Positions 21,590-54,802 of a DNA stretch of 64,000 bases are shown one piece after another (position 1 is the first letter of the stretch; each line of letters begins with the position of its first letter). A program made the position numbers and the translations under genes. The notes beneath the pieces are model-generated. The model had not been told where the DNA came from and ran no database searches. It worked only from the letters and a program-made list of their open reading frames with translations. Origin of the DNA: a virus; the IMG/VR virus record IMGVR_UViG_3300045921_000730, positions 180,294 through 244,293 of that record. One strand, written 5' to 3'.

Positions 21590-21604
21590 TTTAACCCAAA
21601 ATCT

Positions 21605-21725
21605 ATATAGGCTAAGAGCTGGCTGAATTTACGCCTACGGAGTGGCTGATGTTAATGCCACAACGAAGCAGGAATCAAGGTTGCCGTTGGGTGACTCCAC
21701 TTCTTTTTAAGAACACGTGGTGGTT
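21605..21725 (+). pseudogene. 3' remnant of a TnpB2-type gene and its right end
   Basis: About 105 coding bases match the end of tnpB2 (54640-54747): the remnant reads IYAYGVADVNATTKQESRLPLGDSTSF against IYACGVAEVDVTLKQESRLPLGDPTCS. A CGA-to-TGA change creates a stop within it. The right-end palindrome is degraded (CCACTTCTTTTTAAGAACACGTGG). Confidence 0.75.
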
Positions 21726-21740
21726 AAGATAATAATTTAT

Positions 21741-51456: not shown

Positions 51457-51506
51457 AATGCTATCGAAGATTAAATTGTACAGAATGTGGAAAGGTGGTA
51501 TTTGGT

Positions 51507-51620
51507 ATGAACTACCGCGTAGCTAAAGACAACGCGGTTTCCGAACTCAACGACCCAGCCAACTTCACCGGCGCCTCCTTCGGTTTTTGTTTAGAGTCCG
51601 ACTGCGTTCCACAACCAGAC
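51507..51620 (-). ncRNA. Predicted omega RNA scaffold of tnpB1
   Basis: The last ~114 nt of tnpB1 and its right end, with hairpin ACCGCGTTG-TCTTTAG-CTACGCGGT and AGTTCAT. By analogy with IS200/IS605 TnpB this is the guide scaffold. The adjacent flank (guide) is ACCAAATACCACCTTTCCAC, antisense to codons of the bL33 5' half. Confidence 0.6.
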
Positions 51621-52732
51621 ATTAAATTCAAACCTTGACGAAGTGTGTTCTTAGCTGCATTGACATCTCTGTCATGTACTTCACCACAAACAGGGCATGT
51701 CCATTCTCTAATGGAAAGATTCATGTCTTGTATGATGTGGTTGCACGAAGAACAAGTCTTACTAGATGGAAACCATCTATCTATTTGAATTACTTGTCTA
51801 CCATGCCATGCTGCTTTGTACTTCAACATCGAAACTAAACTACCCCAGCTAACATCAGATATTGCTTGTGCTAGTTTGTGATTTTTAATCATGTTCTTAA
51901 CACTAAAGTCTTCCAAACAGATTACTTGGTTATCGTTAATCAATTTGGTCGTTACCTGATGAAGATAGTTGTTTCTTTGATCTACTACTTTTTGGTGTTG
52001 TCTTGCTAGTCTGTACCTAGCTTTTGTTCTTGATTTTGTGTCTTTCTTTTTCTTAGAGAGTTGACGTTGGAGGTACTTGATCTTCTTTAGATGCTTCTTG
52101 AGAAATCGTTCGTTCTTAATCTCTGTTCCATTTGAATCGACAAGAAGAGATTTGATTCCAAGGTCAACGCCGATGATTTCACCTGTGGATTCCTTTTGGT
52201 CGATCTCAAACTCACCCTGAATGGAGGCAAAATACTTACCTGAAGCATTCATTGAAATTGTTACAGAATTCGCTTTCACTAATCGACCAGTGAATTTGCC
52301 TTTGAACTTGAATGGAACTTTGAACTTAGGAATCTTTAGGGTTTTTGCATCCCAGTCAATGACGAAATGTTGAGGTACCTTAAATAATTGTCTGCTATTG
52401 TGTTTAGATTTGAACTTTGGGAATTTGGCAATTTTACGGAAGAAGCGATCATATGCTCCATCTAAATCTTTTAGTGCTGCTTGAATTGTCTGAGAATTGA
52501 TTTCCTTTAACCATTCAAATTCAGGATTTTTCTTCATCTCAGTGACTAGAGCAGAGCAAGCATTGTATCCGATCGACTTTTTGTTTTCTAGGTATTCGTT
52601 CTTACGGATCTCAAGAAACTTGTTGAAGACGAATCGACGAGCGCCAAAATGCTTAGCCAAGAGTTCTTTGTCAGACTCTCTTGGATAAATTTGAACTTTG
52701 ACGGACTTCTGAACTATCACTTGATTTAGCAT
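51512..52732 (-). CDS. tnpB: TnpB RNA-guided nuclease (TnpB1)
   Basis: 406 residues from the ATG at 52732 (longer in-frame starts exist but MLNQVIVQKSVKVQIYP is the normal TnpB beginning). RuvC residues are complete: D190 (IIGVDLGIKS), E274 (ICLEDFSV), D356 (HDRDVNAA), closely matching the spacing of ISDra2 TnpB (191/278/361). Zinc knuckle C327, C330, C346, C349. TnpB cuts DNA next to a short TAM under omega-RNA guidance. An exact late promoter TATAAATA precedes it on the minus strand. The catalytic set suggests an active nuclease, not a dead repressor. Confidence 0.93.
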   Translation of the reverse strand: MLNQVIVQKSVKVQIYPRESDKELLAKHFGARRFVFNKFLEIRKNEYLENKKSIGYNACSALVTEMKKNPEFEWLKEINSQTIQAALKDLDGAYDRFFRKIAKFPKFKSKHNSRQLFKVPQHFVIDWDAKTLKIPKFKVPFKFKGKFTGRLVKANSVTISMNASGKYFASIQGEFEIDQKESTGEIIGVDLGIKSLLVDSNGTEIKNERFLKKHLKKIKYLQRQLSKKKKDTKSRTKARYRLARQHQKVVDQRNNYLHQVTTKLINDNQVICLEDFSVKNMIKNHKLAQAISDVSWGSLVSMLKYKAAWHGRQVIQIDRWFPSSKTCSSCNHIIQDMNLSIREWTCPVCGEVHDRDVNAAKNTLRQGLNLMSGCGTQSDSKQKPKEAPVKLAGSLSSETALSLATR

Positions 52733-52837: not shown

Positions 52838-53013
52838 CAGAATTGGGGCTGAGAAAACCACGTGATCATCAGCGATGAATCAGCCATAAATAATTTACAG
52901 TCTGGTTGTAGAACGCAGTCGGACACTAAACAAAAACCGAAGGAGGCGCTGGTGTTGTTAGCTGGGTCGATGAGTTCAGAAACCGCGTTGTCTTTAGCTA
53001 CGCGGTAGTTCAT
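52838..53013 (+). mobile_element. Element F: 176-bp TnpB mini-element inside the bL33 insertion
   Basis: TTAT (52834-52837), shortened left-end hairpin (CTGAGAAAACCACGTGA...TCAGC), CATAAATA (52885-52892), scaffold from GTCTGG (52900), terminal hairpin and GTAGTTCAT at 53013. The scaffold still reads as the end of TnpB1 ([16 protein letters not shown]...LSLATR). Confidence 0.8.
52900..53013 (+). ncRNA. Candidate stand-alone omega RNA (element F)
   Basis: 114-nt scaffold, 8 nt after CATAAATA. The flank that would be the guide is ACAACAACAACAAAAAATAA, the bL33 coding strand directly after the junction. Confidence 0.55.
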
Positions 53014-53126
53014 ACAACAACAACAAAAAATAAAAAATCGCATCCTGAAAAAATGGAAAAAATAAAATATGATCCAGTTGTAAGAAAACACGTCTTGTAC
53101 AAAGAAGCAAAATTAAAATAACCCTG

Positions 53127-53175: not shown

Positions 53176-53247
53176 GGGCTGGTAGTGATAATGAGAGCAC
53201 GTCGCGTTTGCACCGCGAAGGTGGGAGTTTGATTCTCCTCCGGTCCA
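53176..53247 (+). tRNA. tRNA-Ala (anticodon TGC), diverged D-arm
   Basis: Acceptor GGGCTGG pairs with CCGGTCC, including the G3:U70 pair that marks tRNA-Ala. Anticodon stem TCGCG-TTTGCAC-CGCGA gives anticodon TGC. T-arm GGGAG-TTTGATT-CTCCT. The D-arm is odd: only GTG/CAC pairs, with no clear GG in the loop. CCA is not encoded after the discriminator A. Possibly a phage tRNA that is diverged or partly decayed. Confidence 0.75.
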
Positions 53248-53255
53248 CAAAAATT

Positions 53256-53382
53256 GTAACGGTAAAGCATATTGTGCCAAGACCGGCTTGTTGGAACACC
53301 CTTGGGAATTATTTATAACTACAAATATAATTGATTTTGGGAACCTAAGCCTCTGTAGTACACGTCAACAATTTACCGTTAC
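53256..53382 (+). ncRNA. Candidate structured RNA, 127 nt, closed by an 11-bp stem
   Basis: GTAACGGTAAA (53256-53266) and TTTACCGTTAC (53372-53382) are perfect complements. Inside are CCAAG...CTTGG and AATTAT...ATAATT hairpins. No ORF of coding look covers it, and it lies just after tRNA-Ala under the same promoter. A long closing stem round an internal structure is the build of several regulatory RNAs. Identity unknown. Confidence 0.4.
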
Positions 53383-53468
53383 AGCTTCTTCGTGCGTAAC
53401 AAAAATTGTTAATTCTAAGAACATTATATTTCAACAAAGCATAGATTTAACATTGCACGCTCAAAAAC

Positions 53469-53526
53469 CCACTTGTTGTTAGACAAGTAAATGAAAAAGT
53501 GCTAGAATTACTAGCATTTTCACTCG
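53469..53526 (+). other. Left-end hairpins of the TnpB2 element
   Basis: CCCACTTGT-TGTTAG-ACAAGT resembles half of the tnpB2 right-end palindrome, as expected of paired left and right ends. A second hairpin TGCTAG-AATTA-CTAGCA with flanking A and T arms (53489-53526) may also terminate upstream transcripts. The rest of 53383-53468 shows nothing clear. Confidence 0.5.
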
Positions 53527-53565: not shown

Positions 53566-54747
53566 ATGATTAAAACGTTTGAGGTTCAATTATTACCAAC
53601 AGAAGACCAGCTGGTGCAATTAAAGCAGCACGCAGGTGCTGTTCGTTGGCTATGGAATCAAATGTTAGAAGCAAATATTCAGAAATATGAGCAAGAGAAA
53701 AAATTCATATTTCGCTTTGAAATGCAAAGGTTATTGCCTGAACTAAGGAAGCAGCATCTGTGGTTAACCGAAATAAACAGCCAATCTCTACACGAACAAT
53801 GCATTAATTTAAACAATGCACTGGTGCGAATATTTAAGAACAAGGCCGGATTTCCGCGTTTTAAGAGCAAACATGATGCTGCCGATTCATTCGCTGTGCC
53901 ACAATTTTTCAATATCTGTAATAGAAGCATTAAGTTACCTAAAATTGGCCGATTGAAATATGCAAAACAGAGATGTTTTGAAGGAAAAGCAAAGAGAATC
54001 GTTGTTAAACAAAGAGACGATAAGTGGTTTGCCCTGATTTCATGTGAATTACCTGATGTTCCTGTTCGATCCGTTGCTGAATCAGAAGTTGTTGGAATTG
54101 ATGTTGGAATTAAAGACTTTGCAATATTAAGCGATGGCACCAAGATATCTAATCCTAAACACCTTGAAAAGAGTGAAAAACTGTTAAGAACTAGACAGAA
54201 AGCACTCTCCAGAAAGGTTAAAGGATCACAAAACTGCGCAAAAGCTCGTAATTCAGTGGCTAAATTACATAGACATATAACAAATCAAAGAAAAGACTTC
54301 CAATGGAAACTGGTTGCTTCGATAGCCAAGAAATGGCAAGTTGTGGCATTGGAAGACCTGAATATTCAAGGAATGATGAAAAACCGGAGGTTATCAAAAG
54401 CAATTGGCTCAGCTGGATGGAGTTCATTTAAAAACAAACTGAACCATAAACTAGCTGAAAAAGGTGGATATGTGGTTGAAATTGGACGGTTTGCACCTAG
54501 TTCAAAAACATGTTCATCGTGCGGACTCATAAATGACAATCTAACTCTCAATGATAGAGAGTGGGATTGTGAATGTGGAGTGCATCACGATAGAGATGTT
54601 AATGCTGCTGTGAATATCAGGAATATAGGAATAAAAGAAATATATAGGCTGGGAACTGGCCGAATTTACGCCTGTGGAGTGGCTGAAGTAGATGTCACAT
54701 TGAAGCAGGAATCACGGTTGCCGTTGGGTGACCCCACTTGTTCTTAA
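53566..54747 (+). CDS. tnpB: TnpB RNA-guided nuclease (TnpB2)
   Basis: 393 residues, only distantly related to TnpB1. RuvC residues are present: D179 (VVGIDVGIKDF), E263 (VALEDLNIQ), D344 (HHDRDVNAA). The zinc knuckle has C316, C319 but then C335-x-C337, one residue shorter than the usual C-x2-C. The 3' end carries the same LPLGDPTCS tail as the remnant at 21605. No tnpA. The right-end palindrome overlaps the stop. Confidence 0.92.
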   Translation: MIKTFEVQLLPTEDQLVQLKQHAGAVRWLWNQMLEANIQKYEQEKKFIFRFEMQRLLPELRKQHLWLTEINSQSLHEQCINLNNALVRIFKNKAGFPRFKSKHDAADSFAVPQFFNICNRSIKLPKIGRLKYAKQRCFEGKAKRIVVKQRDDKWFALISCELPDVPVRSVAESEVVGIDVGIKDFAILSDGTKISNPKHLEKSEKLLRTRQKALSRKVKGSQNCAKARNSVAKLHRHITNQRKDFQWKLVASIAKKWQVVALEDLNIQGMMKNRRLSKAIGSAGWSSFKNKLNHKLAEKGGYVVEIGRFAPSSKTCSSCGLINDNLTLNDREWDCECGVHHDRDVNAAVNIRNIGIKEIYRLGTGRIYACGVAEVDVTLKQESRLPLGDPTCS

Positions 54748-54764
54748 GAACAAGTGGTAGTTCA
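54734..54764 (+). other. Right end of the TnpB2 element
   Basis: Perfect 24-bp palindrome CCACTTGTTCTTAAGAACAAGTGG followed by TAGTTCA. It is the expected 3' end of the omega RNA; sequence beyond it would be the guide. Confidence 0.65.
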
Positions 54765-54802
54765 GGAGCGAGGGGTCGCAAGTTCAAATCTTGCATCACC
54801 GA
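54765..54802 (+). tRNA. 3' half of a tRNA gene at the TnpB2 boundary
   Basis: GCGAG (anticodon stem 3' strand), variable GGGTC, T-arm GCAAG-TTCAAAT-CTTGC, acceptor strand ATCACCG and discriminator A. The element end lies in the anticodon loop. The GGA before the stem and the GGGTC variable region look like tRNA-Pro, but the anticodon is lost. No matching 5' half (CGGTGAT...) is found upstream of the element. Confidence 0.6.

What the first reader, a model, noticed from the sequence alone, without database searches (positions are those of the whole stretch)
53566..54802. TnpB2 guide would match a tRNA gene
The tnpB2 right end is followed at once by the 3' half of a tRNA (T-arm and acceptor strand intact). 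Its natural guide is therefore GGAGCGAGGGGTCGCAAGTT, a tRNA sequence. tRNA genes are conserved between phages and hosts, so this guide could recognise many genomes. The 5' half of the tRNA is not seen upstream of the element.
Basis: partly seen in the sequence, partly recalled or inferred. Interest (0 to 1): 0.6.

Follow-up and report, generated by a model that had tools for sequence, protein, structure and literature searches.

The report
Phage TnpB fused to tRNA half
A large phage carries an RNA-guided DNA-cutting enzyme (TnpB) whose built-in guide is the second half of a proline tRNA gene, so it should cut intact copies of that tRNA gene in other phages, but whether it does so is untested.

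Summary
tnpB2 (53566-54747) ends in a palindromic right end, TAGTTCA, at 54764. It is followed without a gap by 38 nt that are the 3' half of a tRNA-Pro(NGG) gene, broken inside the anticodon. The 5' half is absent upstream and from the rest of the 244-kb phage genome. Uninterrupted genes exist. Thirteen IMG/VR contigs and several bacteria contain TTTG|GGAGCGAGGGGTCGC; all 13 viral copies and the one bacterial copy checked are intact tRNA-Pro(TGG). All match 16/16 of the guide and four match 20/20. "Many genomes" is too strong: one of 84,980 species genomes matches over 25 nt, and none of 17 related phage records matches. I found a second case: a tnpB2-type deletion derivative with a strong promoter but no ORF (C1:40356, minus strand) abuts the 3' part of a tRNA-Thr. 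TnpB2 keeps its nuclease residues. The record has seven TnpBs, no detectable TnpA, and at least a dozen solo omegaRNA-like units. The best reading is a TnpA-less IS200/IS605-type unit lodged in a phage tRNA gene whose guide targets intact tRNA genes of competing phages, an RNA-guided analogue of T4 SegB. A passive relic is the main rival. Cleavage, the TAM and omegaRNA expression are untested.

The parts
53566..54747 (+). tnpB2 ORF, 393 aa, ISDra2-TnpB-like RNA-guided nuclease; RuvC D/E/D and zinc-finger cysteines present
   Evidence: Pfam OrfB_IS605, Cas12f1-like_TNB and HTH_OrfB_IS605; phmmer to ISDra2 TnpB 8bf8 E=2.5e-59
53468..53488 (+). left-end hairpin CCCACTTGTTGTTAGACAAGT followed by ATGAA, matching the left-end layout of other elements in this genome
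   Evidence: exact left boundary not fixed
53480..53508 (+). sigma70-like promoter TAGACA-17-TAGAAT of the tnpB2 unit
   Evidence: consensus scan 10/12; homologous to TTGACA-17-TAT(A/T)AT of the two deletion derivatives
54641..54764 (+). omegaRNA scaffold / right end, overlapping the end of the ORF
   Evidence: conserved in three copies without the ORF; four-stem consensus fold with two compensatory pairs
54734..54757 (+). right-end palindrome CCACTTGTTCTTAAGAACAAGTGG
   Evidence: compensatory changes in copy C1:35691
54765..54784 (+). natural guide of TnpB2, GGAGCGAGGGGTCGCAAGTT (may start one base later)
   Evidence: position 3' of the right end; family-B homology stops here
54765..54802 (+). 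3' half of a tRNA-Pro(NGG) gene, from the last anticodon base(s) to the discriminator
53176..53248 (+). intact tRNA-Ala(TGC) upstream of the unit
   Evidence: ARAGORN and Rfam
21590..21728 (+). fourth copy of the tnpB2-type scaffold, without ORF and with a degenerate end

Best explanation
tnpB2 is a TnpB-only IS200/IS605-type unit in a T4-superfamily jumbo phage. Its right end is fused to a tRNA-Pro gene inside the anticodon loop. Transcription through the right end would give an omegaRNA whose guide is the tRNA-Pro 3' half. The TnpB2-RNA complex would then cut intact tRNA-Pro genes preceded by TTTG. Such genes occur in tRNA arrays of other phages, and break repair from this phage would copy the unit or exclude the rival's tRNA region, as T4 SegB does by protein recognition. 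The phage itself is safe because the TTTG-side half is gone. Shown: the anatomy, the intact targets, and a second tnpB2-type unit on a tRNA-Thr. Inferred: expression, cutting, the TAM and homing. The lost 5' half is best explained by later deletion, or by recombination during homing that kept only the right junction.
For: Junction and tRNA half. Thirteen uninterrupted viral tRNA-Pro(TGG) genes read ...ACTCGCTTTG|GGAGCGAGGGGTCGC, all 16/16 in the guide and three 20/20; the five of these loci scanned lie among 7-21 tRNA genes, and two records have a distant T4-type capsid gene. A second tnpB2-type right end joins a tRNA-Thr(CGT) 3' part, with TTGACA-17-TATTAT and no ORF. Scaffold conserved without ORF, with compensatory changes in the hairpin. 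Nuclease domains intact. No Y1 or serine transposase detected, so homing would have to spread it. No self-target within 3 mismatches. Two of three intact family-B ends on tRNA sequence by chance: P about 2e-6 with present tRNA content, 2e-4 with a relative-like array. SegB precedent: PMC2988022, PMC13096335.
Against: The left flank is not tRNA, so the unit is not a clean insertion and the TAM cannot be read from it. No close relative with an empty site was found. Related phages have tRNA-Pro genes but none matches the guide. The other intact family-B unit (C1:35691) does not abut a tRNA. A third orphan 3' tRNA half (C1:63197) has no right end beside it, so halves also arise otherwise. If all about 35 right-end-like motifs are counted, chance adjacency is less remote (P 5e-4 to 3e-2). 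No expression or cleavage data.
Confidence: 0.5

Rival explanations
1. Passive relic. The unit inserted into the phage's own tRNA-Pro gene, the 5' half was deleted, and the tRNA-derived guide has no function now.
For: Related phages carry 0-69 tRNA genes, whereas this record keeps four intact ones and three 3' halves, so its array looks eroded. Many right ends in the genome are decayed.
Against: The 3' half is intact over all 38 nt, ORF and scaffold are intact, and a second unit shows the same arrangement with a near-consensus promoter.
Confidence: 0.35
2. Coincidence. A tRNA half left by array erosion happens to lie next to a right end that came by rearrangement.
For: Third orphan half at C1:63197 without a right end; the left flank is unrelated to tRNA.
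Against: Two gap-free junctions with the same right-end family; chance estimates of 2e-6 to 2e-4 for the three intact family-B ends.
Confidence: 0.1
3. The tRNA 3' half is an attP-type site for integration into a host tRNA-Pro gene.
For: Temperate phages carry such 3' tRNA ends beside an integrase (for example PMC11437467; also hit H35).
Against: No tyrosine or serine integrase detected; T4-superfamily jumbo phage genes; two different tRNA halves.
Confidence: 0.03
4. Assembly chimera at the junction.
For: The record is a metagenomic contig and no reads could be inspected.
Against: The same arrangement occurs independently at C1:40356 with another tRNA.
Confidence: 0.02

Closest known systems
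ISDra2-type TnpB with right-end-derived omegaRNA (IS200/IS605)
   Same: Protein family, nuclease residues, omegaRNA at the 3' end of tnpB, guide from the right flank of about 16 nt (PMC12477157)
   Different: No TnpA in this phage; right flank is a tRNA half; left flank does not match it; TAM would be TTTG(G) rather than TTGAT, untested
T4 SegB homing endonuclease
   Same: Free-standing nuclease gene in a phage tRNA region of a T4-type phage, reported to favour inheritance of that region in mixed infection (PMC2988022, PMC13096335)
   Different: SegB is a GIY-YIG protein reading DNA itself; here the target would be read by a guide RNA
TnpB-only IS200/IS605 elements of phages (ISCaje elements in Campylobacter phages CP220/CPt10)
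   Same: tnpB without tnpA in T4-related phages (PMC2853527)
   Different: No tRNA-derived guide reported there in the passages read

Membership tests
IS200/IS605 TnpB nuclease | OrfB_IS605 and TNB domains with D/E/D residues | tested here: met
IS200/IS605 TnpB nuclease | structured omegaRNA overlapping the 3' end of tnpB and ending at the right end | tested here: met
   (conservation and fold only; no expression data)
IS200/IS605 TnpB nuclease | RNA-guided cutting next to a TAM | not testable with these tools
   needs a bench assay
Autonomous IS200/IS605 transposon | Y1 transposase TnpA | tested here: not met
   no PF01797 match in the record; the record may be incomplete
Autonomous IS200/IS605 transposon | left and right flanks join into an empty target site | tested here: not met
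   no tRNA 5' half at the left end
tRNA-targeting homing nuclease (SegB-like role) | intact target genes exist in other phages and are absent in the carrier | tested here: met
tRNA-targeting homing nuclease (SegB-like role) | preferential inheritance in mixed infection | not testable with these tools
   needs phage crosses
Integrative phage attP in tRNA | integrase gene | tested here: not met

The most novel reading that the evidence does not exclude
A phage uses several TnpB nucleases plus separately promoted solo guide RNAs, at least two with tRNA-derived guides (Pro, Thr), as an RNA-guided system that cuts tRNA genes of competing phages and spreads or protects its own region.
Probability: 0.22. 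Interest if true: 0.75.

Novelty: new variant of a known kind. Interest (0 to 1): 0.5.

Why it matters
If true, it would show an RNA-guided version of tRNA-region homing and marker exclusion in phages, with solo guide units served in trans by a TnpB. It would also give natural TnpB guides a concrete, testable target: the tRNA arrays that large phages carry.

Tried and rejected
(1) Relatives through the downstream 194-aa gene: none in viral contigs or phages. (2) Through the FolE2-like gene: 23 loci, no tRNA nearby. (3) A 26-nt exact tRNA half in viral contigs: none, because the T-loop differs; shortened to TTTG + 15 nt it gave 13. (4) Seventeen capsid-related records for the half or guide: none within 3 mismatches. 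(5) A general link between tnpB2-like genes and tRNA halves: not seen in 11 related loci. (6) tRNA-Thr guide in viral contigs: no exact match. (7) Reading the TAM from the left end: the three family-B left ends do not agree; only C1:35691 has TTTTTG at a plausible place. (8) attP idea: no integrase.

Full report
What is there. The window is C1:180294-244293 of a 244,293-base virus record; window position = C1 position minus 180293. Its capsid, portal, sheath and DNA polymerase genes place it in the T4 superfamily, and the nearest named capsid is that of Xanthomonas phage XacN1 at 61%. tnpB2 at 53566-54747 encodes a 393-aa TnpB that aligns with ISDra2 TnpB of known structure at E=2.5e-59; the RuvC motifs GIDVGIKDFAIL, ALEDLN and HDRDVNAA and the CxxC pairs are present (and direct reading). 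Its right end is the palindrome 54734-54757 plus TAGTTCA, and the next base starts the tRNA half.

The boundary is real. Three other places in the record carry the same roughly 125-140 nt scaffold without the ORF: C1:40356 (minus), C1:35691 (minus) and C1:202021 (plus, degenerate end). Homology to the other copies ends at TTCA or within a few bases of it, apart from a weak extension in C1:35691. The consensus fold has four stems, and two pairs of the right-end hairpin change on both sides in C1:35691 while still pairing. With only four sequences this is modest evidence for structure.

The tRNA half. GGAGCGAGGGGTCGCAAGTTCAAATCTTGCATCACCGA is the 3' half of a tRNA-Pro. The only TTYG+21-nt match in 84,980 species genomes is tRNA-Pro(TGG) of a Dependentiae MAG. 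All 13 viral contigs with TTTGGGAGCGAGGGGTCGC carry it in tRNA-Pro(TGG) with the 5' half in place; all 13 agree with the first 16 guide bases and three with all 20, and the other ten differ at base 17. The break therefore lies between anticodon bases 35 and 36, or 36 and 37 if the element ends in TTCAG. Neither the flank left of tnpB2 nor the rest of the record holds the 5' half; 293 bases beside the window were not fetched.

How widely the guide would match. TTYG+16 nt occurs in 4 of 101 genomes of the Dependentiae phylum, used only because that genome gave a handle; the host is unknown. None of 17 related phage records has the guide within 3 mismatches in 18, although 17 tRNA-Pro(TGG) genes were found in stretches of such records. 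TnpB guides are about 16 nt (PMC12477157), and mismatches beyond about base 12 are better tolerated (PMC11844463). So the target set is specific tRNA-Pro alleles, not tRNA genes in general.

A second case. At C1:40356 (minus) a tnpB2-type unit without ORF has TTGACA-17-TATTAT and its TTCA is followed at once by GTAGTATTATAGCTATTTCGTAAACAGCTTACAGAGGTTTGATTCCTCTACAGAGCACCA, the D-loop-to-3' part of a tRNA whose loop TTCGTAA implies Thr(CGT) (reading by eye). Its 5' part is also missing. The remaining intact unit, C1:35691, has TTGACA-17-TATAAT by direct reading and no tRNA. Two of three on tRNA sequence by chance has P about 2e-6 with present tRNA content and 2e-4 with an array like that of a relative; counting all about 35 right-end-like motifs gives 5e-4 to 3e-2. 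The association is likely but not proven.

Background of the genome. There are seven near-full TnpB ORFs and no Y1 transposase, serine recombinase or tyrosine integrase. A second family of about 170-210-bp units (TTTAT | left hairpin ... CATAAATA ... scaffold ... GGTAGTTCA | T) occurs at least a dozen times, some copies partial, one of them at 52838-53012 beside tnpB1. These look like solo omegaRNA units, which is why service in trans is plausible.

Mechanism. The best reading is given above; expression, TAM and cutting are inferred. The T4 precedent is SegB, a free-standing homing nuclease between tRNA genes (PMC2988022) whose homologues are often near tRNAs (PMC13096335). The missing 5' half fits either later deletion or homing repair that preserves only the guide-side junction; the data do not separate the two. 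I put the function at 0.5 and the passive relic at 0.35.

Verdict. Observation confirmed; interpretation partly supported; new variant of a known kind; interest 0.5.

Noticed in passing
window 52838-53012 (plus); also C1:29955, 38570, 42450, 54641, 55448, 59573, 63653, 168465, 195576, 202236, 243115: At least a dozen solo omegaRNA-like units of the tnpB1 family, most with left hairpin, a CATAAATA late-promoter-like box, conserved scaffold and a different right flank each; those with a clear left end start after TTTAT or similar.
   Followed up: partly
window 53252-53386: A 12-bp perfect inverted repeat (TGTAACGGTAAA/TTTACCGTTACA) closes a 135-nt fold with z = -3.4 just after tRNA-Ala; no Rfam match.
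   Followed up: partly
C1:63197-63217 of the record (L008): A third orphan tRNA 3' half, broken near the anticodon loop, without a right end directly beside it.
   Followed up: partly
L167, L169, L171, L179, L180: Stretches with tRNA arrays of related phages hold a recurring GTTGCGTAG..GTTACTTC motif upstream of T-arm-like hairpins that ARAGORN does not call as tRNA.
   Followed up: no
window 51505-51628 (minus) and 52892-53015 (plus): The tnpB1 right end and a solo unit form a 124-bp inverted repeat around tnpB1, 92% alike, so two guides of the same family point outward.
   Followed up: partly
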